NCBI GenBank assembly: GCA_964030475.1
Contig: CAXIPT010000008.1
Location: forward strand, 182,148-246,147
Reading direction: 5' to 3'
DNA length: 64,000 nt
Origin: Tethya wilhelma
Taxonomy: Eukaryota; Porifera; Demospongiae; Tethyida; Tethyidae
Shown here: positions 2,859 through 31,445 of the stretch, piece after piece
Position numbering within the stretch: the stretch's first letter is position 1
How the letters are laid out: each line of letters starts with the position of its first letter
Position numbers and translations under genes: made by a program
The notes under the pieces: generated by a model
Database searches by the model: none
Seen by the model: only the letters and a program-made list of their open reading frames with translations
Told to the model about the DNA's origin: nothing

Positions 2859-5146
2859 CGTACTTCATGACACTCACAGCTGTTGATGGAGGCACTCCTC
2901 CTCTAACCAGTTCAGCTTCTTTAGAAGTAAACGTCCTTGATGTTGACGACCAAGACGTCAGGTTCACACCAAGCACCTACTCAGCTGGTGTCTTTGAGAA
3001 CAGTCCAATTGGCACTCCGGTCCTGACTGTCGTGGCTCAAGACCCAGATAGTGGCAACCCAATCACTTACTCATTGGATCAAGATCGAGATCAAGAGAGT
3101 TCCTTCAATCGTCTACCTTTCTCTATCGATAGCCAGAGTGGTATAATTTCAGTGGCTGGTCTGCTCGATAGGGAGTTCATTGATGTGTATACCTTCTTTG
3201 TCTTTGCTAGTAATACACCTGGAGTCAGTGCCATGGCAACAGTCACAGTTATGATAATGGATACTAATGACAATATTCCTTCATTTCCCGATGCTCCATT
3301 CCAGTTCCAAGTGTTGGAATCGGATATAGTTTCTACTGTGTTAGGTCAACTTACAGCTGTTGATGGAGACTTGGAAGCAGCTGGGACTATTGTAGCTTAC
3401 AATCTGGTCGGTGATGAGTCAGCAGATTTCACAATTGCTTCACCAAGTGGCCTGCTTTCAGTGGCAAACACTTTGGACTATGAAAGCACTCAGGTCTACA
3501 GTTTCAATGTGACTGCAGTGGATGGTGGGTCTCCTTCACTGACAGGTACTGCGGAGGTGGTGGTGGAGGTGTTAGATGTGAACGATAATCCACCCATTTT
3601 TGATCAAGACGTCTTCAACAGATTTGTATCTGAGAATGCAACCATCGGTACCGTCTTCTTCACAGCCATGGCTGTTGATATTGACTCAGGAATAAATGCC
3701 CAGTTCAATTACTCTCTCAGTCCCCTACAATCTGAATTTGCAATCAACCCCCAAACTGGTGATGTTATCGTTGCATCCACACTTGCCCTACAGACCTACT
3801 CCATCACCATTGTGGCAACAGATTCTGGGATCCCCTCACTCAGCTCTAATACAACTCTTATCATTACTGTCACAGATACTAATGAAGCACCCACCTTTTC
3901 ACAGGCAGTTTACTCCATAGATGTTCCAGAGAATCACGAGGTGGGGTCACCAGTCACATTTGTTGTATCGGCAACTGATCGGGACCAAGGGAGCAATGCT
4001 ATCATCCAGTACTTCATCCAACCTCAAGATGTCTTTGGGATTAACGGCACTGGAGTTGTTAGTCTCTTACAACCGTTGGATTTTGAAGTTCAACAGTCGT
4101 ATGTCCTAACTTTGTTGGCTGTTGATGCTGGAAGTCCACCCCTGACAGCCTTCAGCACACTCATGGTGACTGTGGTAGATGTCAATGATAATGCTCCAAT
4201 GTTTTCCGAGAGCATGTACACCACTTTAATTTCAGAGGACAGTGATGTTGGTACAACTTTTCTTCTCACTTTCGCCATGGATGCAGACAGTCTCTCCAAT
4301 GCAGCTGTCACCTACTCCCTCATAGAGGAAGACAATGAAGGCTTGTTTGCTATTGATTCTCTCTTGGGTACCATCTTCACTCTGCGAGCATTGGACTATG
4401 AGCTTGTTCAGCAAGTAAATCTTGTTGTTCAGGCTCGAGATGGCGGCCAACCAATCCAATCGACATCAGTCCCTGTAACAGTCTTGATTCTTGATGTCAA
4501 TGACAATCATCCAGTCTTTACTCAGAGCCTGTATCAAGCAGCTGTTCGTGAGGACTCCAGCATTGGTAGCACTGTTGTGACGGTGCAGGCCAATGATTCT
4601 GACACAGGTTCCAATGCAGCTGTGTCTTACATGCTCACAAATGGTACCCAGCTGCCGTTTGATGTTGTACCTGAAACAGGTGAAGTCTACATTGTGTTGC
4701 CTGGGCTGGATCGGGAAATGGTTGACCTGTACAGCTTTGATGTGGAAGCTTTTAACCCTTTCTTCCCCGATTTTATCACAACTACTACTGTTCGGGTTAC
4801 TGTACTTGATGCAAATGACAACCAGCCTGTTTTTGATACTAATTCCCTAGCCTTCTCCATTTCAGAAGCATCTTCTATTGATACCATTATTGGCCGTGTT
4901 ACTGCTTTGGATGATGATATAGGCTCAAATGCTGTTGTTGTGTATGTAATAGAACCAGCCTCAGAGTTGGTGTCAATAGACAATGAAACTGGTGTATTGT
5001 CTGTAGAAGGTGAGCTTGATTTTGAGAGGGAGAGAGTTATTGAAGTGACTGTGGTTGCTAGGGATTCAGGAACTCCCCAGCAGTCGGTAAATGCAACAGT
5101 AAGAGTTATGCTAGAAGATGTTAATGATGTGGCTCCAACTATTTCC
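2837..5146 (+). other. EC cadherin repeats, block A (about 8)
   Basis: The first repeat is partial and starts at a typical LDFETQ...AVDGG end. Seven full repeats follow, each about 105 residues and each ending in a linker such as VLDVNDNPPIF or VVDVNDNAPMF. Acidic calcium-ligand motifs (DxD, LDRE/LDFE, DxNDN) are largely kept, so rigid calcium-bound EC rods are expected. One repeat ends in TDTNEAPTF and another in EDVNDVAPTI, both slightly degenerate linkers. Confidence 0.9.
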
Positions 5147-8100: not shown

Positions 8101-11100
8101 AGAGGTGTTGGACATTGATGACAATCCACCTGTATTTGTCCAAGATTCCTATACAGTGAGTTTGTTTGAGAATGCCAGCATTGGAGTCAATGTGTTGGAA
8201 GGAGAGTTGCCATTGCAAGTCATTGATTTAGATGTAGGCTCGAATGCTGTTGTTCAGTTCACAATTGAAGCCGGTGATCCTCAAGGTCGGTTCAGCGTGA
8301 ATCTCATAAGCTCTGACACAGCTCGGCTTATCTTAGCCGGAGCACTAGACAGAGAGATAGTAGATGAGTATGTTCTCACCATACTAGCTAGACACCCCTC
8401 AAACCCACTTCAGAATGACACTGCTTATGTAACAGTTGTTGTGGAAGACGTCAACGACTCTCCCCCTGTGTTTGACTCCAGTGTCTACAGGTTCTCTATA
8501 CCAGAGGACTCCATTACCAATACCCTCGTGGGGCCTGTGACAGTCACTGATGCAGATATTGGTCCTAACAACGTGAGCATTTACAGTATCCTGTCAGGAG
8601 ACACCAGCAACAATTTTGCTATCACTAATACGGGAGATATTCTTGTCACAGCTCAGAGCCTTGATAGAGAAGACATCAGTCAATACACCTTGCAAGTTAT
8701 GGCAACAAATGTAGAAGCTCCAATGCCAAGTGCCATTGCTACAGTCATCATTAGCATATCTGACGTGAACGACAATGCTCCAGAATTCTTACAATCTTTC
8801 TTCTCACTCTCCTTACCTGAAAATACTCCTCTAGGCCAGCTGGTTACTTTGCAAGCCACAGATGATGATGCACTCTCTAATGGTGAGATACTCTATTCTG
8901 TGCATCCTGATAATGCCACGCTCTTTGTTGTGGAGTCTGTCACTGGTGTGCTGAGTACAAGAAGAGCGTTCAACTTTGAAAATGATCCGTTGGAGTACCT
9001 AGTTCTTGTCTTTGCAACTGATGGTGGTTCTCCAGCACTCTCTTCAGAGGCACAAGTTACCATAGCGCTGATAGATGTGGATGAATTTGCACCTGAGTTT
9101 GAAGCTGAGACTTATTCTTTTGAAATTGCTGAGAATTTTACAACTTCCATGTTTGTAGGAAGTGTAACAGCTTCCGATATGGATGGAGGTGTAACTGGAC
9201 TTGTTGAATATCGGTTCTTCAATGTATCTGGATTCTTGCCGTTCAATCTTGATAACCAAACGGGAGATATTTTCACCTCGGCTCCACTAGATAGAGAGAA
9301 TATTGAATCCTATCAATTTTCTATCGAAGCTTTCAATCCATTTGGAACAGCTGGCCTATCATCGACAGCTGTCGTGTCCATTCTCATACTGGATGTCAAT
9401 GACAATGCTCCAGTATTCACTGAACAGGAATACACAGCAGCCATCACCACCAGCGTAGCTGCAATGATGTCGATTTTAACAGTTTCTGCAAGTGATGCTG
9501 ATGATGGTTTGAACGGGCAGGTAGGATACTCCTTGCTCGATCCCAGTGGCTTCTTCACCATTTCTGAGACAACAGGCACCATTTCTTCAGCCTCCCAGCT
9601 CCAGTCTACTGGCACGTACAACATGGTTGTCACTGCCAGCGATCTTGGATCTCCATCTCTCTCCAGCACTGCAGCTGTCCTTGTCAATGTAGTCCAGCCT
9701 CTACAGATTGACTATCAACAAGAAGGGGCTGGTTTTATCCTGGAACAGACTTCGGCTAGCATGCAAGATTTCGGCTTCTTTGTCAATACTCCACCAGGAG
9801 GTTCTGGTACGATAGCTGCATCTCTGTCAGATGCGTCAGTTCGATCAATGTATTCTAGTGAGCTCTCTGAAGCTACACAAATGAGAGGTGTGGTCCTTAA
9901 TGAAGAGGTGTGGCATGACCAGAGGCAGGTGCAAGTGGTGATCCAAGTGTCTGATGATATTGGAGATGTGCACTGTATGGAAGCAACTGTTGCTGTCAGG
10001 CTTGTGCCTGATTCAACCCTTAGAGCACTCAGGAATACTGTACCACTGGTAAGTCTTAATACTATTACTTACAAATGATACCTTAGCTACAGTGAAGAGT
10101 ACACCTTTTATTTCACTCAACTATTACTATAGCTAATGTTAATGATTTTTCACTTTGTTTCGTAGGATCTTTGTACCACATCTTCTGACAATGGAATATG
10201 TGTTGTTACAATCCCTGTACCGTTCGAATGGTTCTCGCACAACCAACCTTCGGCAGAGATTAGTGTCGAGGCAAGATTTCAAGATTCCTTCAGTCTACCT
10301 CTCCCTATCAGCACCGTCGCAGTGAGAGCACAACCTCTACTGAATCTCAGGAACGGTGTGGCTATAGTGACACCTGGAAGACCTGTGCGTGTCTCAGAGC
10401 TCTTTGAGGTACCCATCTATGCTCACGCCACTTACTCAATAGCAGCTCTTGGTATCACTTGTGAGGTAAGCCAACAGTTGGCCATTGAAGGTGTGAATGT
10501 TGATCAGAGCATGTGGATATCTGAAATACGTCCACTAAACTACCAACAAGGTACGCCAGAAATTGGTATTGCTGCTGTCTTGCGTAGTCCTGAATCTGTT
10601 GATGAAGGATTGATAAATCAGCCACAGTTGGTTTTTACTCTCCAAGTTAGAGTCCTTCGCTCTGCACTTGAAGGCAGTAGAGCCAATGTCAGTTGTACCA
10701 CTGCGTATCTTAGCAACATCTACAATGAAAGGATCCAGCCACGAGGTTTAGCTACTCCAGTTGCTTCACTCGCAATAGACTCAAATCCTGACAATGATCA
10801 AACCATAGGTGATGTACAAATAGCACAGACAGTACCTAGAGGACTCTTCTCATTTGCCAACCAGGCACAAATCGTGAACATGGCTGTTTTTAATGATGTC
10901 CCCATTGAAGTTTGGCTAACGCATCTAGTAGCTATGTCCTCTGGTGCACTAGTCACTGTCACTTCAGTAGCTTGCCAGACATCTTCGTCGTCCTTCTACA
11001 TCAGTCATACTTGCGATCGTATCTTTGTGAATGGCTCTGAGTCAGAGGGAGCTGATAGTGATCTCGTGATCGCACAATACCAAGATTTTGTGACCACCAT

Positions 11101-14100
11101 TCCAGTGCGTGTGTGGTTCCCTACTTCTGAAACAATGATTGAAAGTGCTCCTTCTACTCTTTATGCGATTCAAGACTGGGTTGTACCAAATGGTTCTGGC
11201 CAATGTGTGCAGCAATTCCAACAAGCCAAATTGAGTGCTTTTGCTACTTTTGCCTACAGTTCTTCCTCACCGGTATTCACAGTGTCTATCCTTCCACATA
11301 TTGTACACTTCCTTGCTCCATCAAACCCGGATGTAGTTGCCATCTCTGGAGACGGGACAGTGTTTGGATCGATGCCAGGAAGTAGCTTAATCTCTGCACC
11401 AAGCAGTCTGATTTCCCCGGTGAATGTAACCATTCTTGAAAATCCAGTTCAAGTGACTTCTCTCGATTTGACGCTCTTTAGTGGCCTTGCTCTCAATGTG
11501 CCAACATCTCCTTACCCCCGCTTCTCCACTCAAGTGGCGTCAGTTAGTGTTGAACGTTCCTTCACATCCATTGCTACTCAAGTATTCTCTGCTGTACTGG
11601 CTGTCACTTCTGATGGTGGTGTATTCCCAGTCCGACCAGAATTTGGTTTGATATTGCGATCCCTAGACAGTACTGTCATTGAAGTTGATAATGGAACTGT
11701 TTCTCTTGTTGGTAGGGGTTCTGGTGAACTGGTCGAGGTTAGCTGGGTCTCGCCGTGTACTAGTGACGTGTTGGCCACCAGTACTGGATACATTGATGTG
11801 CTCATTCCTGATCCATCTTCACTCAGTGTGGACTTGTCGTCTTCACGGATCACTTACGCCGGTGATACTGCAAGCTCAAGTGGTGTGCCACTATCTGCAA
11901 GATTCTCCATCACCATTAGCTTCCCAGATGGTCTAACCAGAGATGTCACATCTGACGAAACAACAAGTTACACCATCTTACAGGGAGATAGCCTCATCTC
12001 ACTCTCAGTGTTGCAGTCCCAAGCTGTCGTTGCTCCTGTTGATGTGACAGAAAGAGCTGTAGGAAATGTTGTGATAATGGTTGCTTTCGATAATTTGCTC
12101 TTTGCTAACATCTCCTTGTCTGTCGTGAAGTACCAAGGTGTACGAATGTTCTCCACACCACTTCCAGCCTATCCAGGATCTGAATTCGTTTCGAAGACTA
12201 CACTGTTTTCATTTCAGAATTCCAACCAGTTTCAAAGAGTTGCACTCGAGCTTGATGCTGTCTTGACTGATGGCTCAACCATCTCTGTCACTCAGTCTCT
12301 GTTTACACTCTTCCAGTCCTTGTCTCCAGGGTTGATACTAAATGGAAACACAGTCCAGGCCTTCTCTGTGGGAGATCATCAAGTTCGAGGTCAGTTTGGA
12401 CCTGATTCTACCACGCTTACTATTACTGCCTCAAATGATCCAGTTTCAATCACCTCTTTTGTAAATATTTCGCTTGAAAATGTTGACGACACTTTGAGCG
12501 GTGTAGCTGGTCTCCAATCTGTTCCAATTGTCATTGATGCTGAGTTTAACGACAGCACCATCTATCCGAGACTTGCTCCTGATGCAGTTGGTCTCATTCC
12601 CAGTCTATTAGTGCTCTCAAGTGATGGGCAAGACACAGTATCAATCGATCCATCCACAGCTAGTGTCACTCTACGGGCCAATAATCATTTGTTGGTGACC
12701 ATCACTGCTGCGAGTAGATCTGATCGACAAATCACTAGTGAAGTTACTTTTGCCTGTAATTTGCAACCAGCAATAGGTGACATTGACATTGGCTTTGATT
12801 CTGGAGTTCCGATTCCATCAGCTCAAGTTGGAGACCGATTCTCAGTACCTCTATATGTAAACGCGGGAACACAGTTGCTATCATCTATTGAAATGGACAT
12901 TTTGTACAATTCTGATATCCTTAGCTATTCTTCTTTTATTCGTGGTCCATCTTTGCCTGAAAACATACTGAGTATCACTTCACCTAGACCAGGGGTCTTG
13001 GTACTTACTGGAAGTGGGCTGACTGGTATGTCTGGCTTAATTCAACTTGCTTCTCTTGAATTTAGCTCTACTGCCACCGGAGTTGCTTCAATCAGTGGCC
13101 GTATCCTCCAGATACTGGATACGAATGGAACTCCAATTGGAAATGGCTTGGTGAGAGATTTTGTAGCTGGTGATGTGAGTGTTGAAATCACATCTAGTAG
13201 TAGCAGAAGAAGAAGAGAGGCTGATCCCCAGCTAGTTAGAGTACGAAGAAATGTCCAATGTCCTTCCACACCACCTTGCAGTACTTGTCCAAGTGCTAGA
13301 GAGATTGGAGATGTAAATGGTGACTGCATTTTTGATGTTAGTGATCCCTTCTTCTTGCTTCAGTATCACACTGAAAGTCTCTTTGGTTTTGGCCTAACCT
13401 CAGGTATGACTCTTCTTGCCGATCTCATCGATAGTCAGAGAGAACAGCTAGATGTCGACATGAACACTGTGCTAGACCTTCAAGATGTCTTCTTCTCATT
13501 TCAAGCCAATTCTAACCTCTTGAACTTCATTACCAATGTGAATATCTTGCCCGTTGAACAAAACCCATCTTGTTTGCTTGCCATCAATGCTACTGTGCTA
13601 GGACGTGGCAACGTACCACCAAGTCCACAAAACACTGAAGTATACTTTGATTTAGCTTTGCCTTTCGATCGTACCTTCACAACACAGCAACTCTTTGATG
13701 AATCAGTTGTCGTCTTGGGAACAGCTTCTCCAGCTGTCAGTAAGGGGTCGAGTTTACAAGGTGGTGTGTTACAAGCTGCTCACATTGAGTCAGGTGTGTT
13801 TGGCATTGAGATACTAACAAACTTGACTCTCAATGATATTGGATTGAGCGTGATTCAAATCACATCCTCAAATGGACAAACCACCAATCAAGCTCGAACC
13901 AAAGCCTTCTTTGGCCATCCCAATCCTCCCTATGTTTATTCTAGCCAACTGAATATTGAGGTCCCAGCTTTTGCTGGTTCTACAACTGTCCGTGCTACAA
14001 GTGGTTACAATCCTTTCACTGTGTTCAACAATACACTATCATCTGGTGTGTGTCTTATCCCTCCTGGGCCTCCCATACTGAACCAGTCTCAGTATCTTGT

Positions 14101-17100
14101 GGAGCTACCAGAGAATACACTTCTTGGTACGACAGTTCTTACAATTACAGCTGTGAGTCAAAGTGAGATGGAACCAGTATACACTATTTCAGCTGGCAAT
14201 GACGGCAGAGTATTTTCTCTGGATCCAAATACTGGTGTGTTGAGTTTGAGAAACTCTCTTGACTTTGAGATGCAAACTTACTACCAGCTTGAACTTGTAG
14301 CTACTGATCCAGTCACATCCTTTTCATCGGTTGCCAATGCCGACATATCTGTGACTGACATCAACGACAATAATCCAGTTTTCACTTCATTCGAAGCAAA
14401 CATAACCATCCCAGCAAACACTCCTATTGGTGGACTCATCACTAGTGTATCTGCCAATGACTCAGACAGTGGTGTGAATGCCGATGTGGAGTACAGCATC
14501 GAAAGTGATGGAGACACGTTTGCAATTGACCCCACATTTGGGGTGATCACTCTTCAGCAACGACTAGATTTTGATGTACAGAATTTATACTTTGTCACAG
14601 TGAATGCTAGTGACATGGGTGCACCTCGATTGACCTCATCCATCACCATAACCATCAACATTGATCCACCCGATCCCACAGTTCTTCAGTTCTCACAGGC
14701 TGTCTATTCTGAGGATGTCGAAGAGAATGTACCAAATGGTACCCCTCTGTTGGTGCGAATCCTAGCCTTCCCAGTGTCAAGTACCAACTCCGAAGATAGT
14801 GGGAACAGCCAGATAGAGTACTCAATAACTTCACCCGAGAATGTGCCATTTGTCCTCAACTCAAGGTCAGGACAATTGCTAGTGGATGGTCAAGTCGATA
14901 GAGAAGCAACATCATCGTACAGTCTCCTTATCTCTGCTACTCTTGCCAATGTCACTCGTGCCATACCAGCCATGGCGGTGGTGAGGATTACAGTCCTGGA
15001 TGTCAATGATAATCCACCTGCGTTCTCTCAGGACGAATACACCGGAATCTTGATTGAAGGAACCCCACCAGGAACCCTCTCATTGGTGGTGTTTGCTGGC
15101 GATCCTGACCTAGGTCTCAATGGGTCTGTACAGTACTCACTGTTAGTTGACTCCACCCTCCTCTCCATAGAGAGCACGACTGGCCGGCTGACTAACACAG
15201 CTGAGATTGACTTTGAGACTAACACGACTCTCGCAGCTGTGGTTGTTGCATCTGATATAGGCACCCCGCCTCTATCAAGTACTGTAAATGTGACAATCAC
15301 TATTGTAGATATCAATGATAATGAACCAGAGTTATTTGTCTCCCCTGTGAATGTGACCTTGGCGGAAGGAGCACCCATAGGTACGTTTGTTGCACAAGCT
15401 AGTGCATTTGATCTAGATTCACCCAGCACCAATGGCAACTTGCTATTCAGTCTTGATTTTGTTCTGTATCCATTCACGATCAATCCCTCCACTGGTGAGA
15501 TTTTAACATCATCGCCACTTGATTTTGAAATCGTTTTATCGTACCAAGTGATCATCATGGTTCAAGACAGTGGCAGTCCACCTCTCTCTTCTTCTGCCAG
15601 CCTCTCCGTTGCCATTAGCGATGAAAATGACAACCAGCCTTTCTTCGTACAAGAGGAGTATGACATCACTGTTAGTGAAGAAGTGGGCATTGGGGTACTA
15701 CTCCTTCAATTGGATGCTACTGATGAAGACTCTGGCTCCAATGCAGAAGTAACTTTCTCTCTTGTTGACAATTCTCCCATCTTCAATGTAACTGCTGATG
15801 GAGCTGTTCTTCTAGCTGCTCCTCTCGATTTCGAAGTTGATTCGCTCTATGTTTTGAACGTGTCTGTGTCCAATCTCGTTCCTGGTACTTTGTCCGATTT
15901 TGCAACTGTCGTGGTGGAAGTTACTGACTTCAATGAGTTTGCACCCATCTTCTCTGCAGATGTCTACAATGTTACAGTTGTAGAAGAATCCTCGAATGTC
16001 TTTGTCGTACAAGTTTCAGCAGTAGACTTGGATGGAACTGCCAATGTGTCATACACTCTGGATCAACCTGGCAGGTTTACGATTGATATTGATGGAAATG
16101 TGTACATAACTCAACCCCTTGACAGAGAAACCACCCCACAGCTGCAAGTGGTTGTAGTAGCCAGTGACAACAGCTCTCCTGCGATGTCCTCCAGTGCTGT
16201 TATTTCAGTGAGTGTGACAGACATTAATGACAATAGACCTGAGTTTGGAGCATTTGAGAATCTCACCATCTCTGAAGCTACCCCTGTTGGAACTCCCTTG
16301 TTGACTTTCACAGCCACTGATAGAGATGCTGGTAGCAATGGAGAAATTGGTGGATTCATTTTGGTGAATTCCAGCCAGGACTTCAACTTGACAGCAAATG
16401 GAGAGCTCTCAGTTGCCGAGCAACTCAGCTCTGATGTAATGCCACAATATGTGCTGATTATTGAAGTCCAAGACAGGGGCGCTCCCCCATTGTCATTGGC
16501 AGCTGTCTTGGTCATCACTGTCCAACCCTCAGCTGCTCCCGAGTTTGAACGTCAAATGTATACCATTTCTGTCGAAGAGAACAACTTTCCAAATATCAAT
16601 TTGGTACAAGTCAGAGCTACTTTGAGGAACCCTATGACAGTTATCACTCAATACTCTCTTTCTCTAGAATCAAATTCCTCTCTTGGAAATGTGTTCGCAG
16701 TGGAACCAAACTCTGGGAATGTGACAGCTCTGATCAGTTTTGACCGAGAAGAAGTAGATCAATACACACTCACCGTTGAAGTGGAAGCAGAGTTCAATGC
16801 CACCATCTTCTCAGCCACCACCACTGTTGTTGTGACAGTATTAGACCAGAATGACAACCCACCAGTGTTTGCACTTGAAATCCAATCCGTTTTGATTCCA
16901 GAATCCACAGAAGTTGGAACCATAATAGCCAATTTCGAAGCATCAGATCCCGACATAGTCAATAGCATGATCGAATACTCCATTACAAATGGAAATACTG
17001 ACTCGCTGTTTGCTATTGATGGGAATGGAAATGTCTCCACATTGCAGTCACTCTTTGCTCGAGTTGGCACCTACAATCTCACTATACAAGCTTCCAATCC

Positions 17101-20100
17101 TCCCGATTCTGTGGGTACTTTATCCTCAACAGCCCAGCTTGAGATAAGCATTGAACCTGTCAATAACTTCTCTCCTGAGTTTGACATGGACCAGTACTTT
17201 GTTGAAGTAAATGAGAATGCCACAGTCAATTCTGTGCTGGTGACTGTAGCAGCCAATGATTCTGATATTGGGTCTGCCGGTCAGATTGTGTATGACATAG
17301 CAGCTGGCAATGATGATGGGACATTCAGTATTGACGCCACAACTGGTGTGCTCACATTAGAATCATCTTTGGACTACGAATTGAGAACAGGCTACGACTT
17401 GATCATTAGTGCTAGTGATAGGGGCTCACCCATCCGTAGTTCAGAGGTAAATGTCACAATTCTAGTCCTTGATGATAATGACAATCCACCAGTGTTCACA
17501 GAAAGGCTCTACAATGGAACCATATTGGAAAACCTTCCATCTGGTCAGTCCATCTTAACAGTGAATACTACTGATGTAGATTCACAAATAAACTCACTAG
17601 TCAGGTTTGAAATTGATTCCAGTGCTGTGTTTGAAATCACATCAACTGGTGTGATACAAAATACAATAGCCTTCGATCGGGAATCACGTGTCAGTTACAT
17701 CGTCACAGTAACAGCCATCAATGAGGGAGCAGGAGTGGTACTAACAGCTACTGCCATGGTTCAGATTGATGTGGCCGATGTCAATGACAATGCACCTCAG
17801 TTCAGTGAGCCTCAATATAGGCGCACCCTCCAAGCTCCTGTCCCAGAGAATACCACCGTCATTCAGGTCCAAGCCAATGATTTAGATGATGTTGGTCCTA
17901 ATTCCCAGTTGCAGTTTAGCATTGACAATGCAAACGGTACATTCACAATCGACCCACAATCTGGAATAGTTTCTGTTGCTACTGAAATTAGAGTTGAAGC
18001 TAACTTCACCCTCGTAGTGACTGTATCTGACCTTGGAACACCACCCCTCTCCAACGAATCCTTGATACTAGTGTTTGTCCTCCCAGCTGATGATCTGACT
18101 GTCGGCCGAGAGAGAGATGTCACGTTTACAACTACTCGTGGCGTTCATCTCATCAACACACCACTTGAAATAGCAGAAGACACTTACCAACAACAATATG
18201 GCTTTGTAGTTGGTAGAGACGTTCGTGAAACACGTACCATCACTGCTTCTTTGGGCTCTTTGTCGGACACTTTGATGAACATCTCTCCACTGGATCTCCC
18301 AGCTGCCAGTGTGAAGGCTGTTCTCATTACTAGTGAAGTATGGCACGATAGTCCACAAGTATTAGTCACAGTGCAAGTAAGGGATCAAGCTTTCAATGTG
18401 CACTTACAGCAGACCGTGATGGCTGTTGTCACCCATCCAGTATTGGGTAGTGTTGAAGCCAGCTGCCTGACTCAATCCTCTCATGGCATCTGTACAGTAT
18501 CTGTGACCATTCCTGATAATTGGTTCTTGAGTCAGACATCTGTAGTTGTTGAATATGGACTTTCGATGATTTCCCTTCAAACTTTAGGTTCAGTTAGCAT
18601 ACAAGCAAGGCCTGTGTTTGTAACTGGAAGCAACATATATGTCTTCATGGAAATGCCACTACGAAATCTTTTCAGAAATAATCTCTTTACTGTCTCAGTT
18701 TATGGAGAAGCTGGTACAAAGGCCGTTGGATCGTACACCATCACAGTCAGCACAGCTAGTGATATCACACTAGTAAGGTTGAATGCTGACAGCAGTGTTT
18801 GGCAGGCTGTGACTCGGACAGGCTCTGGCGGGTCCCAAACCATCACAGCTGTCAGAGCAGACCAAAGTACCACTCCACCTGCTGTGAGGGACCTTCTCTT
18901 CACTATAACTGCACAAGTATCTTCCACAAGCTCTGTAGATACTCTTATAACAGATGCCATCGTAGCCGACATTGTAGATTTTGGTGACTTTGACAGGATG
19001 CGACTTTTGCCTTCACCTGGAGTCCAGTCTGTTCCCTCACAGGCCTTGTCACGCAATGGCATCACAACTTCTGGTGCAGTATTTGTTGCTGATGATGCTA
19101 CTGTCGGAATTCTTCCTTTTGTAAACCACGCTGAACTTGTGAACACTGCCATTCTAGATGGGGTAACAGTTTCAACTCCTATTAATATCCAAGAAGTACA
19201 TCTCTCAGGAAATATTTTATCTGTTATGAATAGAGTTAATCCAGCTTGCAATTCAAGTAGCACAGGTGTGATTTCTGTGTCCCCTGATTGCTCAAATCTC
19301 CTCCTGACAACAGCTCAGACCCAACCATCAGTGGAGACCACCATCTTCACAACACACGATGGACAATCTTCATCATTTCAATTCCAGAATCCACAGAAGT
19401 TGGTACCATAATAGCCAATTTCGAAGCTTCAGATCCCGACATAGTCAATAGCATGATCGAATACTCCATTACAAATGGAAATACTGACTCACTGTTTGCT
19501 ATTGATGGGAATGGAAATGTCTCCACATTGCAGTCACTCTTTGCTCGAGTTGGCACCTACAATCTCACCATACAAGCTGCCAATCCTCCCGATTCTGTGG
19601 GTACTTTGTCCTCAACAGCCCAGCTTGAGATAAGCATTGAGCCTGTCAATAACTTCTCTCCCGAGTTTGACATGGACCAGTACTCTGTTGAAGTAAATGA
19701 GAACACTACAGTCAACTCTGTGCTGGTTACTGTAGCAGCCAATGATTCTGATATTGGGTCTGCTGGTCAGATAGTGTATGGCATAGCAGCTGGCAATGAT
19801 GATGGGACATTCAGTATTGACACCACAACTGGTGTGCTCACATTAGAATCATCTTTGGACTACGAATTGAGAACAGGCTACGACTTGATCATTAGTGCTA
19901 GTGATAGGGGCTCACCCATCCGTAGTTCAGAGGTAAATGTCACAATTCTAGTCCTTGATGATAATGACAATCCACCAGTGTTCACGGAGAGGCTTTACAA
20001 TGGAACCATACTGGAAAACCTTCCACCTGGTCAGTCCATCTTGACAGTCAATACTACAGATGCCGATTCACAGATAAACTCACTAGTTAGGTTTGAAATT

Positions 20101-23100
20101 GATTCCAGCGCTGTGTTTGAAATCACATCAACTGGTGTGATACAAAATACCATATCCTTCGATCGGGAATCACGTGTCAGTTACATTGCCACGGTAACGG
20201 CCATCAATGAGGGAGCAGGAGTGGTACTAACAGCTACTGCCATGGTTCAGATTGACGTGGCCGATGTCAATGACAATGCACCTCAGTTCAGTGAGCCTCA
20301 ATATAGGCGCACCCTCCAAGCTCCTGTCCCAGAGAATACCACCATCATTCAGGTCCAAGCCAACGATTTAGATGATGTTGAGCCTAATTCCCAGTTGCAG
20401 TTTAGCATTGACAATGCAAATGGCACATTCACAATCGACCCACTGTCTGGAATAGTTTCTGTTGCTACTGAAATTAGAGTTGAAGCTAACTTCACCCTCG
20501 TAGTGACTGTATCTGACCTTGGAACACCACCCCTCTCCAACCAGTCCTTGATACTAGTGTTTGTCCTCCCAGCTGATGATCTGACTGTCGGCCGAGAGAG
20601 AGATGTCACGTTTACAACTACTCGTGGTGTTCATCTCATCAGCACACCGCTTGAAATAGCAGAAGACACTTACCAACAACAATATGGCTTTGTAGTTGGT
20701 AGAGACGTTCGTGAAACACGTACCATCACAGCTTCTTTGGGCTCTTTGTCAGACACTTTGATGAACATCTCTCCAATGGATCTTCCAGCTGCCAGTGTGA
20801 AGGCTGTTCTCATTACTAGTGAAGTATGGCACGATAGTCCTCAAGTATTAGTCACAGTGCAAGTAAGGGATCAAGCTTTCAATGTGCACCTACAGCAGAC
20901 AGTGATGGCTGTTGTCACTCATCCAGTATTAGGTAGTGTTGAAGCTAGCTGCCTGACTCAATCCTCTCATGGCATCTGTACAGTATCTGTGACCATTCCC
21001 GATAATTGGTTCTTGAGTCAGACATCTGTGGTTGTTGAATATGCACTTTCGATGATTTCTCTTCAAACGTTAGGTTCAGTCAGCATACAAGCAAGACCTG
21101 TGTTTGTAACTGGAAGCAACATATACGTGTTCATAGAGATGCCACTGCGAAATCTTTTCAGAAATGATCTCTTTACCATTTCAGTTTATGGAGAAGCTGG
21201 TACAAAGGCTGTTGGATCGTACACCATCACAGTCAGCACAGCTAGTGATATCACACTAGTAAGGTTGAATGCTGACAGCAATGTTTGGCAGGCTGTGACT
21301 CGGACAGGCTCTGGTGGGTCCCAAACCATCACAGCTGTCAGAGCAGACCAAAGTACCACTCCACCAGCCGTGAGGGACCTTCTCTTCACTATAACTGCAC
21401 AAGTATCTTCCACAAGCTCCGTAGATACTCTTATAACAAATGCCGTTGTAGCCGACATAGTAGATTTTGGTGACTTTGACAGGATGCGACTTTTGCCTTC
21501 ACCTGGAGTCCAGTCTGTTCGCTCACAGGCCTTGTCACGCAATGGGATCACCACTTCTGGTGCAGTATTTGTTGCAGATGATGTTACTGTTGGAATTCTT
21601 CCTTTTGTAAACCACGCTGAACTTGTGAACACTGCCATTCTAGACGGGGTAACAGTTTCGACTCCCATTAATATCCAAGAAGTACATCTCTCTGGAAGTA
21701 TTGTGTCTGTTACAAACAGAGTGGCTCCAGCTTGTAATTCAAGTGGCACAGACGTGATTTCCGTATCCCCTGATTGCTTAAATCTCCTCCTAACAACAGC
21801 TCAGACCCAACCATCAATAGAGACCACCATCTTCATAACACATGATGGACAATCTTCATCATTTCCTGTGAGTGTGTGGACACCAGTAGTGCCTGTTCAA
21901 CTGGTAGCCACTGACAGTGTATTAAATACCATTCCAATTTTGAGTCCAAATGCCAATTGTTCAACAATTTTCCAAACAAGTACGTTTGATGCCTTTGTGG
22001 AATTTACCAACTCCAGAGATGTAGTCCAAAATGTCGATGTGACCTCCATGGTGAGCTCACAACTTAGCAGCTCAGACTCTTCAATCCTGACCATCAATGG
22101 AGATGAAGTTAGTGGTGTAGGCCTTGGATCTGCTCAGATTGTTGTATCACCATTGAGCTCCTTCCTCAGCATGCTTCCAATAGAGTTCAACATCACTGGA
22201 GAACCAGTTGAGCTTCTTGGCTTGGATGTGAGAGTGCTGACTCAACTTGGAGTATCAGGTATGCAGAACATAGGTCGATTGAGTGTGACACCACTTACTG
22301 TGAGTACAGAGCAAGTGTTGGACTTTGAAGGTGATTCAGGTTTGGTAGTAACTACAGCAGTTTTTGCCGATGGATCGAGAATTGTACTGAATGAACAAGA
22401 CTTGAATTACACATCACTTAATCCCAACGTTGTCCAAGTCACTGGCAGCTCTGTGACTGCAGTTGGTAGTGGAGAAGGAGATCTTGTTGAAGTCACATGG
22501 AACCCCGCATCTGATTGTCTCAATGGACCAATAGCCACAGGACTTGGGTTTGTTTCAGTGAATATACCTCTACCAGACAACATAGTTGTCTCTGTGACAG
22601 ATCCTATCCTAGCTAGACCTGGTAGCAATGCTGAATTTATTGGAATTCAAACTAGCACTTTGATTGAAGTCACTGCCTTGTATGCAAACGGTAGGCCACA
22701 AGACCTCACAAATGATGACAGAACTGTCTATAATGCTTCTCAAGGTATTACCATCTCAAATGGACAGCTGTCCATCTCAAGCTCAGTCCAGGTTGGAAGT
22801 TACCTGATTGAAGTCTCATTCACCCAGTTTCCAGGTTTGGAACGGAACGTGAGCATCACTGTGGTGGAAATAGAAGACCTTGTCCTCTCTGCAACTCCAT
22901 TCCCCACATATCGAGGTTCCAGTTCCAACAGAATCACACAGCTGAATGTTATAGGCACTACCAGAACCAGACAACGGGCCTTGCTGGCTACTACTGCTGT
23001 ACTGAGCAACCAAGACCGTAGAGACATTTCCAGCTTCCGTTCTCAGCTCGAATTTGATGTAGCTGGATCACGACCAGAATTAGGAACAATCTCTTCAGTA

Positions 23101-26100
23101 TCTCAACAAAATGTGCTCAGCTTTAGTGATGCTGCCTTTTCAGGTCATGTGGATATTTCTGTAACTTTTCAAATGTCTGTGTCCTCTAGCAGTTCACTGA
23201 GACTGACAATATCGTCGAGAGCTGTTCAGGTCAGTAACATAATCATCTCTCCATTTCCTGAAGGAAATACCTTCAGAGGAATTGTCGATGTTGCAACACG
23301 GCAGGTTGTCTTCAGTGCCACATTCGATGATGGCACACAATATGTCAATCTCTTCCAAGATACCATGTTGTCGAACCTTGTCAGCTTTAGTGCCTCCCCA
23401 TCAACTGCTCTGACCATCAACTCAGTCTCAGGTGTGGCTACGTTGAGAGGCAACTCACATCTTCCAGCCACCATTACAGTCTCCTCTTTGGGAAGTCCAC
23501 CAATATCTCGATCCCTTCCAGTCTTGTGCAATCTTGATCCTGATGTGGGAGATGTAGATCTGGGATCACGTACCGGTGTTGCCGTTCCATCACAGTCTGT
23601 TGGTTCCACCTTTACAGTTGCCTTGCGTGTGAATTCCGGTTCATCGATATTAGATTCTCTAGAACTGGATATCACTTTCGATCCCACCATTTTCCGAGCA
23701 CTATCGGCAACACGAGGTGTAGACTGGCCGTCAACTGGTCAGTTTGTCTCAAGTATTGATGATCCAGTGGATATCGTCACCCTCGGAGGAACTCTCGTTG
23801 GTTCCAGTCCTGTGCGAGGCAACGTACACCTTGCCAATATCGTATTTGAAGTTGTGAGCTCTGGACTCTCCAACATGTCCGGGATTGTACGCACACTAGC
23901 CCAGCAGGGTCAGTCCGGTTCACCGGCTACCAATATCGGCTCTGTTCCCAGAGATTTTGTAGCTGGAGCTATACAAATTGAGGCCACTGGCTCGAGAAGG
24001 AGACGTTCGACTGATGCCATCAAGGATGAGCCCGTGAGACGAGTGAGGAGGCAGTCCTCTTGTCCTTCTCCTCCTTGTGCTAGCTGTGCTCCATCTAGAG
24101 AGACGGGTGATGTGGATGGCAATTGTGTGTTTGACGTACGAGATGCATCCTTCTTACAACTCTACATCCTGGAGACAGTAACGACAGGGACTGCCCCCTC
24201 ATTACCAGCCAATAGGCAAGTGTATCTCGATATTGATATGAATGGAGCGGTGGATCCAAATGATGTCATCTTCATGCTCAGAGTAAACTTCCGACTGCTT
24301 CGTTTCCTATTAATGCCCACCCTCGTCTCAGTAGAGGATTCAACAGACATCAGTTGTACCATGAACATCAACATGACGCTGCTAAATCGACAAGACATTC
24401 CAGCTGACAATTCATCCACCTCACTTGTAGTTGATTTTGCTCACGAAAATAATGCCTTCCAGCAGATGTTTGACAACTCAAACTTTACTGTTGGTTCTCT
24501 ACTTCTAAACAACAAAGGTTCTGGCTTGTATGGAGGTCTGGTAGAAGCTGCTTACTTGGGAGATGGAGTGTATGGCATTGCATTGGAATCAGCCATCACT
24601 CTAAGTCCCTTTGGTCTTTCACCAGTTCAAGTTACATTTGATGCTTTGGGCAGTACGTCCACGATTCGTACTGCTGCCATGTTTTCCCAGAGTGTTCCTC
24701 TCTATGGTAACTTGGACCTCAGCTTCCCACTCCGTGGAGAGACCATTTCAGTGAGCACACAAGGGGGTTACTCTCCTCTCATTTTGGCCGAGAGCTCTCT
24801 CACAACTCCTGCTTGCGTCTTACAAAGATCACCACTCGACTTTGAGAACCAAACCTACAGTGATAGTGTCGTTGAAACTACAAATGCAGGAGCGTTCATC
24901 CTTCAAGTGAGAGCCATTTCCAACAGACCCTCTCCCATCATAGCATATTCTATAATCGGAACTGTTCCTTTTGCTATTGACTCCACCTCTGGTGACATCA
25001 CTGTCACAGCTATGTTAGACTTTGAAGTTGATCCGTCATCCTACTCTTTCAGTGTGACAGCTCTTGAGACTGTTGGAGTCAACTCATTCACAGCATCGAC
25101 ACAGATCACGATAACATTGGAGAACATCAATGATATAGAACCAGTGGTTACCCCTCTTGGTGTGATCCAAGTGCTGGCCAACCAGGAAGTGGGTGTTGAA
25201 GTAGCTCGTGTTGTAGGCAGTGATCCCGATCTCTTGGATGCACTGCAGTATTCTATCCAATCGAGTACAGCTGCTGGATTGTTTGCTATTAATCGTTCGA
25301 CTGGTGTATTGACGATTGCAAGTTCATTGCTAAGCAGTGCAAATACTCTTGTGGAATTAAATGTGTCTGTGTCTGATAGCTTGTTTAGTACGTACACATC
25401 TGTTTCAATGGACGTTTATCTCCCAAGTTTTACTCAACCCCTCTACAGTGCTGTCATATCCGAACTGGCTCCAGTGGGCTCTTTCGTGCTGTCTCTTCAG
25501 ATTGAGAATACAAGAGCAGAAGTTTTTGTGTTTGAGTCACAGTCTTCAATGTTTGGAGTGAATGCATCAGGTGTACTGTTTGTCCAAGGCCAGCTGGACC
25601 ATGAAACACAGAGCTCCTTCAGTTTCACTGTGACTGCCAACTCAACAGGCATCCTCCTTCAAACAGAGGTTCTCATCACGCTGTCAGATGTCAATGAGCA
25701 TGCTCCAGTTTTCTCTCAAGATTTGTACAATCTCACCTTTCCTTCAAGCACACCCATCGGAGCACTGATTGTTCGAGTTTCTGCCAATGACAGCGACTCA
25801 CCTGGACCAAGCTCAGATATTGCCTACACCCTAGTACCCAGCTCCTTCTCCACTCTTTTTAGAATCAACAGTTCTACCGGTGAAATATTTCTAGCTCAAA
25901 CCCTCCTCGGTCAGCCTTCTCCAATCGAGCTGAATGTCTCAGCCACTGATTCTGGTGTGCCTGCTCTGTTGAGCTTTGCATCTGTGCTATTGGAGATCAC
26001 TGCACCACCTCTCACTTCATTCCCCATCCCTCCAACTGTTAGTGTCACTGGTAGTGGATTTCTAATTCAAGCAACACCTCAGAGATCCTCTCAGACTTCA

Positions 26101-29100
26101 AGCTTTGTCACTTTCCAACAAGATCAAGGGAAATTCTCCAGCTCCGTTGCAAGCCAGCTGACAGCTAGTTATCGTGAAACTGACATATCAGCTTCTGTTG
26201 ATATAACCACTGAACTCCAGCCTGCTACTAATGCATCAGTGTTTTTGCTTCATCCATCAAATGTAGTCTATCACGATGGACCAGAATTGAGTCTAGCATT
26301 GCAGGTAAGAGATGCTCATCATCGTGCAGCTACGTTACCTTCAACCACTGTCCAGTTTGAAGCAAATCTCATTGGCGGCTCTCCAAATATGAGGTCTTCT
26401 CCTTGTTCACCGAACTCACAAGGCGTTTGCATTACTTCTCTTTCGCTACCTTCCAGCTGGTTTGCTCAATCAAGTAGTGTTATTTTAGTCCCAATACTCA
26501 ATGGAGAAGCTGCTGGTATTGATATTCCCATGTTTGTGTTGAATCTTCAACCACCTGCTGTTGTCAATCCTGCCTTTGTGAATCACATTATCGTTGAAGT
26601 ACCATCAAGAGACATTATAGCTGGAGAAACGTTCAATCTTGATGTGTACGGCAACTCCACGTTCCCAATCTCTGGATTTTCAGTTTCATTCCAGTTAGAT
26701 CCTGCCCTCATAGCTCACAGTATTGTCATTGATCGTAACCAGTGGAGCGTGGAGAGTGTGAATGCCACCAACTCCTTTGGTGTCACTGCCATCTTGACAA
26801 CACCTGTCAGTCAGGTTATGCCTGGTAGCGATTCTCGTACAAGCCTCTTCTCACTTCAACTCTTAGCTAGAGCAAGCACCAGCACACCTTTGACTGCAAT
26901 CATAACGGCACAGGTACAATCTTTGAGTAATGTAGTGGAAGGCAGTGTGATTCTTGGCTCTACAACCTCCACATCGGGACCTGCACAGTTTGTTGATCGA
27001 AATGGTTTAGGCGTTAGTGGTAGTGTCTTCATCGTACCCAATGCTGTGGTTGGTCTCTTTCCATCTGTCCAACAAACTGAGATACTCAACACAGCTGTTT
27101 TGAATGGCATTCCAGTCTCCCTTCAGATCGACCTCTTTGCTGTGTATACCTCTGGACAAGTACTACCAGTTGGTTTAAGCCCTTCTCTAACCTGTTCATC
27201 CAGTCAAACTGGTATTATTAGTATTGACCAAAGCTGCCTCATTTTGACACTGTTTGGCAGAGAAACAAGTGGAAGTGATGATGTTCGGATAACATTCAAC
27301 ATGGGCACTGCATCGGGGATGCTACCACTGAGGGTGTATTACCCCACTTTGCCTGTGAGATACACTGTTCCCGACATCATTCTGAATCGCATCCATTACA
27401 GCGAGGCCTCCACCTGTCAGGTCTACCAGAACACCACCGTTTCTGTAACAACAGACTTCACTGCTGGCACTCGAACACTGACCGATGTGTCTGTCACTGA
27501 TATAGTAGTGCCCTTGTTGAATAGCAATGACTCTACTGTAGCTACAATCACCTCTAGTGGTACTATCATCAGCCTGAGAAATGGAGGAGCCCAATTTTGC
27601 CACCTTTTCTTGACTAACCTCGGCTGTGTGGAAATAACAGTTTTTGACCAACCAGTGAGTGTTGCTGGTATTGTTGGCTCCTTGCTTGTTGGAATAAGCC
27701 TGAACGCTAATTCCTCTTTAGCTCCCGCTACTATTGCAACCGTTGACATTGACTTGAGATCTCAGCTTCAGTTTGAGCGAGAGAGGGGAACCCTTGTCCT
27801 TGCTGTGATGTATTCTGATGGTAGCGCCTCATCCGTTAGTCCAAGCGATTTTGTATTGCAGCCATCTTTAGACAGCTCTATTTATGAGGTTCAAAGTAGT
27901 GAAATAGTTGCTCTTGGTTCTGGTGAGAGTCAAGGAGAGTATATTTGGACTCCTCAAAATGGACAATGTGGTCTTAGAGTCATGAATTCTTTCGATGTTT
28001 CCATTGTTCTTCCCTCACCTACAGCGATAAGAACATCTCTTCTTCCTTCTCCTCAAGTCCACAACATCACAACCTCTGGCAGTTCAGCATCTCTTGTCGG
28101 AATACCAACATCCCTAGCTCTTCAAGTGAGTCTCGAATATCCAAATGGTCGTACACTTGATGTTACATCTGATCCAAGAGTGACCTACACACCTTCAACT
28201 GATCTCATATCAGTTGCCAGCAATGGAGATATAACAGTTACAGGTCAAGGTTCGGGAATGGTCCAACTAAACATCACATTTGCCACAGGCAGTGATAGCT
28301 TAAGCACCCTCCTTCTAATTGATGTCGTACAATCAACAGCTCTTCGACTTCTAGCTCTTCCTTACCCATCATACCCAGGCTCTGATATGACACATCTTAC
28401 TCTTCTCAATCTTGTTGACAACACCCAAGTGTGGCAAAAAGTAACTCTTAGACTACAACTTAGTCTCTCCAACAACCTGATTGTGGATGTTACAAGCTTT
28501 ACTCAAACAACCCTCACATCTCGAGCAGCAGCAGGTATCGTCACACATCAGATTTCGAGTGGCAACATTCTTACCGTATCTGGAAATGGTTTGGTAATTG
28601 TTGAGGCTACTTTTGGTTCAGAGATTCCAACTGTGGTAACATTGCAAGTCAGTTCATTATCACCAGTCAGAGCTACTTCTGTGTCTGTTGACCCATTACC
28701 ACAAAGTACACTCCAAGGAGTGAGGGGTACATTCAATACACAACTGACTATCGACATCACATTCTCTGACGGTACTCAATTCCTAAATTTCCCACTGAAT
28801 CCTCCATTTACCGATGCCTATCCGGGCCTGGTTACCTACACCACCACGAGCGAGGCCTTCAATGTCAGCGAGCAAGGTCTACTACAACCTTTGCTGAATA
28901 GAATATCGCAAGAAGAGGTCCGAGTGAATGTTGGACAGAATTCTATCCCATCTTCGACGAGTTTTGTCGTGAATCTAGAACCAGATGTTGGAGATATTGA
29001 TCTTGGTGTCCAAGGAGGTGTACCCATCCCCACGTCATCAGTGGGTAGTGAGATCATAGTCCCAGTGCTTGTGAACACTGGAGATAGAGCTTTGGGATCC

Positions 29101-31445
29101 ATCGATATTGAAGTGACGTACGACCCCCTCGTTCTCCGACCACTCAGAGTTGATGCTGGTCCAGATTGGGGTTCAGGAATATATGAGTCCTCTTTGAATG
29201 ATCCTTCTGGCCTCATTCGGCTGGGCGGAGCACAGAGTAGTGGCGGCATTATTGGTACGAGACTGCATATTTTCAACATCAGACTTCGTGTACTCAGTGC
29301 CCCTTCATCCGGTGAGACGTCCCTCAGTGGCAATGTTGTGAGGATTGCTGAAGGGGATATCGTGGGTACTCCTATTGGTCCACCGACCCCACGTCCCATT
29401 GTAGCTGGGGCAGTGACATTCATGATCTCCTCCTCAAAACGATCAGCTCACCAACCTAAACCTTTCCTTCCTTCTTCAACTCATGAACAGCACACACGCA
29501 GTCGAAGACAAGCTGTTCAATGTATGATCCCTCCTTGTCCCTGTTCTGGACAGGCACTAGGAGATACTGATGGGAATTGTGTCTTTGACATAACAGATGT
29601 CTACTACACGCTTGTTTACATCACTGAGTCATCGCTAGGCTTCACTCAACCTCGTGGTCAAGACATCCTAAACAGGACTACACCAAAACAGCTGCACCAG
29701 CTCGACCCAAATCAAGATGGCTTTGTGGACACCAGCGATGCTTATTTCCTTCTACGAGCTCTTTTTAGGCTTGTCTACTTCTTGGAGAATGTTCAGGTCA
29801 CACCTGTTCAAGATCTTAGCTCTGGCTGTCTCCTTACTGTGGAGGTACAACTGAGAGCTAGTGAGAATTCAACAGTAGGTGAGGCTGAGGTGTTTGTAGA
29901 TATAGCTTTCATTGACTCTTCTCTGCAAGATGGTTTTGATTCCAGTTTAGTTGAAAGAGGTAGTTTGATAACATCAAACAAAGGGTCCCAGCTTTATGGA
30001 GGAATCATATCTGCCCAGAGATTGTCAGAAGAGATGTTTGTTGTTCAACTCCAAGCCAACTTTGTCTCAACTGATGTTGGTGTTTTAGTAATCACAGCTA
30101 CTTTCGATTCACAGAACAACACAAGCACCTCACGAACCACCCAGTTCTTTGGCCCTCCTCCTCCTCTCTATACCTCTCCCCTCAATCTTCCTCTCAGCAC
30201 TCGTGGCACTTCCATTCTTGTTGGCACCTCGACCGGTTACTCACCATTTCTCACAGCTTCCAATACCATTCCATCATTCGATTGTACTGATGCTCCACTC
30301 CTGGCTCTAGAGCTCAGTGTCAACTTCACATCCCCATTCCAGGCAGTTTTGGAATGGAATCTTACAAACATTAGAATGGGACTCAATTTCACAACTTTGC
30401 TACAAATCATCATAACCAATTGTAGCATCAACCAAAGTGGTGTGACTGACAACAGCACATGTACCACCTACAATGTTACCACTGTTGATGCTAACACGAC
30501 TCACACTCTCCCAACTCTTCCATTCATGGATTACACCTTTCAAGTGCAAGCTCCCACAACTTCCACGAATCCAGTCCAAGCCCAGTCTCCCGAGGCACCA
30601 CCCAACAGAGTCCAAATCCCAACCTTTACACATGCACCAGGACAGGTTCTATTCACGTGGGAACTGCCCCTGTCTCCTAATGGCATCATTACTCATTACA
30701 CTCTGAATCTCCGTTCAGAAGTCGTCTACAATTCAACCCAAATGTCATTCACGCTCATTCGTAACATCACCCAGCCTGTGAACTACACTCTTGAGGCTCA
30801 CAACTCGGCGGGCTCTGCCACTAGCAGTGCAGGTCTTCTCACAGTTTCACCCTTCATTGTTGGTGGGCCCGGCGGTCGAGATGGCATCAGTTTGGGAATC
30901 ATTGAGGCAATTGTGGTGTGTGTGGTTGTTACCGTAGTGATACTGTTGGTGCTGTTGTCCATACTGACAGCCGGGATGTGCAGGCATCGGTTGAGTTTGA
31001 AGAAAAAGGAGCCAACATTTTCGTTTCTCTCAACTGACTTCTCCAATGAAAACACTGCAGTGGTAAGTTTTATCCATTACATCATTATTACATCATTTTA
31101 AGAATCTTACCACCACTTAGTCTATCAAGCCAGACCCTTTTCTTTTATTGCAATGGCCACAGGCCATGAGCAGGGTCATGGTTTGATGGGCTACCTTTTA
31201 AATTATGTAATAATGACATCATCATTATGTAATCAGGATAACATAAAATTCCCGACAATTTAATAATTATGCAGGAAAAGATGCCTCTCCCTGATGACAG
31301 TGTGTACGTTCTTCTTCCTCTGGGAGCTCAGAGAGGCAAGCACTTTGCCGAGAAGTTCAACACCGAAGATCCAAACATGTTTTGGTACAAAGACGAAAAA
31401 CAAATCGTAAGCCAAATAAAGACTTTCTCGTAAGCCATTAATCTG

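What the first reader, a model, noticed from the sequence alone, without database searches (positions are those of the whole stretch)
12774..29790. Three cohesin - furin site - dockerin cassettes inside one cadherin
Seen directly: in each of three places a cohesin-like domain is followed by a basic R-x-R-R site (13238, 24040, 29497; the first two also have RRRR), a Cys motif with PPC, and a dockerin with two complete 12-residue calcium loops. All six loops keep their ligand positions. Known: cohesin and dockerin bind each other tightly in bacterial cellulosomes, and coherins with cohesin domains are reported in choanoflagellates and sponges. Inference: the giant ectodomain is cut by furin-type proteases between cohesin and dockerin, and the pieces stay joined by calcium-dependent cohesin-dockerin pairing, in cis or between cells. 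That would be a cleavable, reversible adhesion lock.
Basis: partly seen in the sequence, partly recalled or inferred. Interest (0 to 1): 0.88.

Follow-up and report, generated by a model that had tools for sequence, protein, structure and literature searches.

The report
Protease-cut calcium clasps in sponge cadherin
A giant cell-surface protein, probably from a sponge, carries three times over a cohesin and a dockerin domain (two domains that grip each other in bacteria) with a protease-cutting motif between them, a layout also present in a choanoflagellate; it is likely cut there and predicted to stay clasped by the domain pair, which would make a breakable calcium-dependent joint that may be as old as the ancestor of animals.

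Summary
At window 12749-14053, 23524-24819 and 28963-30288 a cohesin domain is followed by furin-type basic sites, a Cys/PPC motif, a dockerin with two complete calcium loops and a further beta domain. It is neither chance nor local: I found 143 cohesin-to-dockerin cassettes in 60 proteins (7 in this genome, three genes), including two Salpingoeca rosetta proteins. Of 143 linkers, 124 hold a strict R-x-[KR]-R, 79 hold two separated ones, 141 a dibasic site; in the first 140, strict motifs occur at 29 per 1000 residues against 0.045 elsewhere in the same proteins. The gene is a coherin/TMEM132-type cadherin. AlphaFold2 leaves the basic linker disordered yet gives pTM 0.88 for cassette 2 and 0.83 for its cohesin plus dockerin alone, as expected if the two domains pack across the cut. 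Best reading: proprotein convertases nick the linker, often twice, and cohesin-dockerin pairing likely keeps the pieces joined. Cleavage and binding are untested. In this assembly a 2.5-kb tandem duplication breaks the reading frame between cassettes 1 and 2; relatives have all three cassettes in one open frame. I found no description of cohesin-furin-dockerin in the papers I could search; two key older papers were not held.

The parts
2822..10078 (+). open frame with cadherin repeats, upstream part of the same gene (joined to the next by a short inferred intron inside the TMEM132-type conserved region)
   Evidence: frame; PF00028, 16 stretches; the intron is inferred from the split domain, not shown
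10166..19411 (+). open frame holding cassette 1, cadherins and one TMEM132 unit; ends early because of the duplication
19288..31101 (+). open frame holding cassettes 2 and 3, cadherins, TMEM132 units, membrane helix
10844..11125 (+). TMEM132 fourth (BIG-type Ig) domain, unit 1
   Evidence: PF16070
12749..13189 (+). cassette 1 cohesin
   Evidence: own HMM (built with it, so by construction); Pfam 20.2 bits, below cut-off; aligned with 35% identity to cassette 2
13205..13216 (+). cassette 1 basic site 1, RRRR
13238..13249 (+). cassette 1 basic site 2, RVRR
13298..13525 (+). cassette 1 dockerin; calcium loops 13310-13345 and 13451-13486
13526..14053 (+). cassette 1 post-dockerin domain (two conserved Cys)
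21592..21885 (+). TMEM132 fourth domain, unit 2
   Evidence: PF16070
23524..23982 (+). cassette 2 cohesin
23995..24006 (+). cassette 2 basic site 1, RRRR
24040..24051 (+). cassette 2 basic site 2, RVRR
24097..24300 (+). cassette 2 dockerin; calcium loops 24109-24144 and 24229-24264; loop-1 Cys 24124
24304..24819 (+). cassette 2 post-dockerin beta domain
27052..27351 (+). TMEM132 fourth domain, unit 3
   Evidence: PF16070
28963..29427 (+). cassette 3 cohesin
   Evidence: PF00963 36.5 bits
29437..29442 (+). cassette 3 dibasic site, KR
29497..29508 (+). cassette 3 basic site, RSRR
29554..29778 (+). cassette 3 dockerin; calcium loops 29563-29598 and 29704-29739
   Evidence: phmmer against PDB found no dockerin for it alone
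29779..30288 (+). cassette 3 post-dockerin domain
30898..30978 (+). predicted membrane helix, so that all three linkers lie on its N-terminal (outer) side
   Evidence: one search gives the coordinates; call by eye from the hydrophobic run
16895..21865 (+). tandem duplication 16895-19379 / 19381-21865, 95.25% identical without gaps, shifts the frame
   Evidence: single copy in the ortholog P0002

Best explanation
Each cassette is a clasp whose cohesin and dockerin are joined by a linker carrying furin-type motifs, and proprotein convertases likely cut that linker in the secretory pathway while the cohesin is predicted to hold the dockerin so that the giant ectodomain would stay together through non-covalent, calcium-dependent joints. 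Shown: the domain order, the calcium ligands, the position and conservation of the motifs, a membrane helix downstream. Predicted by model: the linker is disordered while cohesin and dockerin hold a fixed arrangement. Inferred: cutting (often at two sites, releasing a short peptide); that no disulphide bridges the cut, because the linker Cys cluster and the Cys in calcium loop 1 lie on the dockerin side of the sites; that after cutting each inner fragment starts with a dockerin and ends with a cohesin, so the fragments form a head-to-tail chain that can break and re-form with calcium or force, as a mechanical fuse in adhesion.
For: Domain identities. Motif conservation: 143 cassettes in 60 proteins, 124 with a strict site, 79 with two separated ones, 141 with a dibasic site; enrichment and two controls on the first 140; in 38 cassettes that are under 50% identical to each other, 30 have a strict site, 16 two, 36 a dibasic one. 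Residues after the strict sites are Q, N, E, S, A, D in 193 of 204 (that this suits furin is recalled). No linker Cys lies before the last basic site in 134 of 141 linkers with one; in 7 of 141 three do. Calcium positions kept: loop-1 D1 and D12 in 140 of 140, loop-2 D12 in 138 of 140; both loops present by a relaxed ligand set in 139 of 143, by the strict set in 108 of 143. Every cohesin hit at 1e-6 or better (140 of 140) is followed by a dockerin within 150 residues. AlphaFold2: pTM 0.88 and mean pLDDT 89.2 for the 441-residue cassette, stretches under 50 only at 1-3 and 161-176; pTM 0.83 for cohesin plus dockerin without the post domain. A rough bound gives 0.62-0.65 and 0.64-0.70 if the cohesin floated, 0.80 and 0.87 if docked. 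Proprotein-convertase P domains are present in this genome, 10 matches over the cut-off. Choanoflagellate members.
Against: No cleavage or binding data exist here. The tool gave no coordinates or PAE, so the packing rests on pTM and on assumed domain sizes and errors, and the contact surface was not seen; both models share nearly the same alignment. Strict sites are absent in 19 of 143 linkers and any dibasic site in 2 (cassettes 1 and 2 of the upstream gene), so cleavage is not required in every copy. The cassette of the C1 gene has a degenerate second calcium loop (sequence) and no Pfam hit. The homologs were collected by similarity to the cassette region, so they are not a random sample, and related sequences are not independent.
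Confidence: 0.57

Rival explanations
1. The linkers are cut by convertases, but to release fragments: the cuts would shed the N-terminal pieces into the matrix, and cohesins and dockerins would bind partners on other molecules or cells rather than their own neighbour.
For: Same motif conservation; Cys cluster on the dockerin side means no disulphide is seen across the cut; cohesin-dockerin pairing in cellulosomes is between separate chains (recalled; also PMC6030884).
Against: Every cohesin hit at 1e-6 or better is next to a dockerin (140 of 140) and PF00404 and PF00963 searches of the whole genome found no free-standing dockerin or cohesin elsewhere except a calmodulin-like false hit (a capped, sensitivity-limited search); the models predict fixed packing within one chain.
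Confidence: 0.22
2. The clasp works uncut: cohesin and dockerin close a loop in cis as a structural or mechanical element, and the basic linker is a charged spacer, for example a glycosaminoglycan-binding patch.
For: Two cassettes of the upstream gene keep both domains without any dibasic site.
Against: The linker letters shuffled give a strict site in only 14.9 of 140 against 121 seen, and two separated sites in 0.2 against 77: the pattern, not just the charge, is kept. Residues after the sites are not basic.
Confidence: 0.16
3. The domains are decayed relics of a bacterial gene transfer with no present binding, and the linker motifs are incidental.
For: Dockerin scores below the Pfam cut-off when the cassettes are scanned alone; cassette 3 alone finds no solved dockerin.
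Against: Ligand positions kept in 140 aligned dockerins at 27-75% typical divergence, motif enrichment, high-confidence fold.
Confidence: 0.05

Closest known systems
Coherins (cadherins with cohesin domains of choanoflagellates and sponges)
   Same: Cadherin repeats plus cohesin domains; PMC6030884 (parts 1 and 2 of 3 of the text seen) says coherins, lefftyrins and hedglings hold the five TMEM132 domains in order
   Different: The dockerin beside the cohesin and the convertase sites between them are not mentioned in the text I saw; the defining paper (Nichols et al. 2012) is not held
TMEM132 family
   Same: TMEM132 second, fourth, fifth and sixth domains are found in each kind of unit
   Different: Human TMEM132 proteins have no cadherins, and PMC6030884 says dockerin homologues are not detectable in vertebrates
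Bacterial cellulosome cohesin-dockerin pairs
   Different: Here both domains sit on one chain, separated by a cuttable linker, in an animal-type adhesion protein, with a Cys at loop-1 position 6 in 139 of 140
Non-cellulosomal archaeal cohesins such as Archaeoglobus fulgidus (2xdh)
   Different: No furin-type linker is expected in archaea; not examined here
Notch S1 and other nicked, non-covalently held receptors (recalled)
   Same: Convertase cut in the ectodomain with pieces predicted to stay joined
   Different: A different clasp (cohesin-dockerin instead of the Notch heterodimerisation domain, GAIN or SEA) and up to three joints in one chain

Membership tests
Cohesin domain (PF00963) | profile score over the curated cut-off | tested here: met
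   36.2 and 36.5 bits for cassettes 2 and 3 against 24.1; cassette 1 20.2 is below
Cohesin domain (PF00963) | cohesin fold | tested here: met
Type I dockerin (PF00404) | two calcium loops D-x-D/N-x-D/N-x3-D/N-x2-D | tested here: met
   six of six loops in the window
Type I dockerin (PF00404) | profile score over the curated cut-off | tested here: inconclusive
   whole ORF3 24.0 vs 22.9, but 17.1 for cassette 2 alone and no hit for cassettes 1 and 3; profile of 21 cassettes to solved dockerins 4.3e-7
Cohesin-dockerin pair | calcium-dependent tight binding | not testable with these tools
   only indirect: pTM 0.88 and 0.83
Coherin | cadherin repeats together with cohesin domain | tested here: met
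   PF00028 in all three frames, PF00963; original definition not read
TMEM132 | TMEM132 Ig-type domains in order | tested here: met
   PF16070 over the cut-off in each unit, PF23486 over the cut-off in ORF3; PF23481 and PF23487 hits are below their cut-offs
TMEM132 | compact five-domain ectodomain with RVxF and WIRS tail motifs | not tested
   cytoplasmic exons were not assembled; the ectodomain is clearly larger and holds cadherins
Proprotein-convertase substrate | R-x-[KR]-R in an accessible, disordered, lumenal stretch | tested here: met
   sites in three of three window linkers; model stretch 161-176 under pLDDT 50; membrane helix downstream
Proprotein-convertase substrate | observed cleavage | not testable with these tools
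   needs protein data

The most novel reading that the evidence does not exclude
Before animals arose, cells built giant adhesion receptors as chains of separately cut links: convertases cut the precursor into fragments with a dockerin at one end and a cohesin at the other, which snap head-to-tail within and between cells through calcium-dependent cohesin-dockerin joints, giving a reversible adhesion polymer that tears and heals; vertebrate TMEM132 proteins are the remnant of one link that lost its clasp.
Probability: 0.2. Interest if true: 0.95.

Novelty: new variant of a known kind. Interest (0 to 1): 0.8.

Why it matters
If true, a protein clasp known from bacterial cellulosomes works as a convertase-cut joint in adhesion proteins shared by sponges and a choanoflagellate, which gives a concrete, testable mechanism for calcium-dependent, breakable cell adhesion near the origin of animals. 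It also offers a possible partner for the orphan cohesin domain of the TMEM132 family, whose human members are linked to hearing loss and panic disorder (PMC6030884). Salpingoeca rosetta carries the cassette and is a laboratory organism (recalled), so cleavage and pairing can be tested directly.

Tried and rejected
Dockerin hit on C12:1154738: calmodulin-like EF hands (sequence), rejected. First PDB search of cassette 1 failed for a wrong frame; cassette 1 was then covered only through the profile of 21 cassettes. PDB search of cassette 3 alone found only a WASP chain at E 0.55. The profile search with the seven own cassettes found one protein only (P0001, 1 of 7999 scored candidates) because of the length limits; the search with the whole ORF found 53 (1803 scored) and the one with the S. 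rosetta protein 4, two of them new (7986 scored). A scan of 84,980 bacterial and archaeal genomes for the cassette found 105 stretches with the dockerin motif and one relative, matching dockerin residues 193-219 only (FCB-group MAG), so no prokaryotic cassette with this linker was seen at that sensitivity; a cohesin-dockerin protein of another sequence type is not excluded. Identity of the post-dockerin domain: no Pfam hit; the structure search was filled by the cohesin and barely tested this part, so its fold is left open. Papers: searches; for most papers I saw only the listing. The one paper holding furin, dockerin and cohesin together is on SARS-CoV-2 spike force measurements (listing only). 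Nichols 2012 and Peer 2009 are not held and may already describe dockerins in coherins.

The own-genome HMM hits of the seven cassettes are by construction (they built the HMM); the counts are carried by the other proteins.
Full report
What is there. The window lies in a 124.6-Mb, 204-contig genome and holds one large gene on the + strand whose coding parts are open frames 2822-10078, 10166-19411 and 19288-31101. They encode cadherin repeats, TMEM132-family domains and three cassettes of cohesin, basic linker, dockerin and a further domain, ending in a membrane helix at 30898-30978.

It is part of a family. In the same genome a second giant gene about 84-100 kb upstream (frame C8:77335-101280, 7982 residues) has three more cassettes, and a mucin-like gene on C1 without cadherin hits in the frame read has one (one search failed and was redone). 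Of the seven, five have a strict basic site; cassettes 1 and 2 of the upstream gene have none. A search with ORF3 found 53 further proteins and one with S. rosetta PTSG_01972 added two. Together 143 cassettes in 60 proteins: 34 proteins have three, 15 two, 11 one; proteins with fewer include cut-off frames. In P0002 and others one open frame of about 6100 residues holds all three cassettes. S. rosetta PTSG_01972 and PTSG_07261 have one each, with RRRR, RARR, a PPC motif and a dockerin in the same order; PTSG_01972 has a hydrophobic start and a strong membrane helix near residue 2110.

The linker is under selection for convertase-type sites. On 140 cassettes of 58 proteins the strict motif is about 650 times denser in linkers than in the rest of the same proteins; 121 of 140 linkers have it (random windows 0.2 on average, shuffled linkers 14.9); 77 have two separated sites (shuffled 0.2). 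On all 143: 124, 79, and 141 dibasic. With one cassette per 50%-identity cluster: 30 of 38 strict, 16 of 38 two, 36 of 38 dibasic. In the linkers listed the first site typically follows the last cohesin strand and the second precedes the Cys motif, while the stretch between varies in length and letters. Where two strict sites exist they are 6 to 36 residues apart, median 15, so a double cut would release a short peptide (inference). In 134 of 141 linkers no Cys precedes the last basic site; in 7 three do.

The calcium loops are kept. Loop 1: D1 140, D/N3 139, D/N5 139, D/N9 132, D12 140 of 140; loop 2: D1 136, D/N3 132, D/N5 130, D/N9 132, D12 138 of 140. Both loops pass the strict pattern in 108 and a relaxed one in 139 of 143. 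The C1 cassette has lost ligands in loop 2 (sequence).

Do the pieces stay together? For the 441-residue cassette 2 AlphaFold2 gives pLDDT 89.2 and pTM 0.88, with confidence under 50 only at the tip and at 161-176, the basic linker. With the last domain left out, pTM is 0.83. A simple estimate with assumed errors gives 0.62-0.70 for a floating cohesin and 0.80-0.87 for a docked one. I read this as predicted packing of cohesin on dockerin in the same chain. The limits: no coordinates or PAE were returned, the two models share nearly the same alignment, and calcium is not modelled.

Mechanism. I commit to a convertase-nicked clasp: cut in the secretory pathway, held by cohesin-dockerin pairing, so each inner fragment begins with a dockerin and ends with a cohesin. 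Convertase P domains exist in the genome (10 matches over the cut-off; not all need be convertases). Release of fragments and an uncut clasp are the main rivals; the two site-less cassettes of the upstream gene favour the uncut clasp for that gene.

Assembly caution. 16895-19379 and 19381-21865 are 95.25% identical without gaps and shift the frame; 73 of 106 differing codons are synonymous, and ortholog P0002 has one copy. Other back-to-back copies (45631-46290 with 46292-46951 at 100%, 50498-51495 with 51495-52487 at 98.2%, and 1-683 with 5166-5848 at 100% continued upstream at 94.9%) suggest that the assembly has joined alternative haplotypes (inference).

Known or new. Coherins, TMEM132 cohesins and the shared domain order are in print (PMC6030884, parts 1 and 2 of 3 seen). 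That text does not mention a dockerin beside the cohesin in coherins or furin sites, and my ten searches of the library listed no paper that does; Nichols 2012 and Peer 2009 could not be read. Hence: new variant of a known kind.

Noticed in passing
16895-19379 and 19381-21865: Gap-free 95.25% identical tandem copies that break the reading frame; single copy in the ortholog P0002, so probably joined haplotypes.
   Followed up: partly
45631-46290 / 46292-46951; 50498-51495 / 51495-52487; 1-683 / 5166-5848: Further long near-identical copies, two of them back to back, of the same assembly-error look; the last continues upstream of the window (L021 7665-10000 matches 2830-5165 at 94.9%).
   Followed up: partly
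L017-L019 (C8:77335-101280): A second giant cadherin/TMEM132-type gene upstream with three cohesin-dockerin cassettes, two of which have lost every basic site in the linker: a natural uncut comparison.
   Followed up: partly
L027:4636-5844 (C1:17405635-17406843): A mucin-like gene, without cadherins in the frame read, carries the same TMEM132 unit and one cohesin-basic linker-dockerin cassette; its second calcium loop is degenerate.
   Followed up: partly
window 12749-14053, 23524-24819, 28963-30288: A Cys sits at position 6 of the first calcium loop of the dockerin in 139 of 140 aligned cassettes, after three Cys in most linkers: a likely disulphide cap of the new N-terminus.
   Followed up: partly
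P0005 2684-2785, P0037 929-1023, P0056 138-227: Weak matches of the cohesin HMM before the TMEM132 Ig domains suggest that each unit also has the TMEM132-type cohesin, a second possible dockerin partner.
   Followed up: no
L007 (C12:1154738-1154872): Dockerin profile hit that is a calmodulin-like EF-hand protein.
   Followed up: yes
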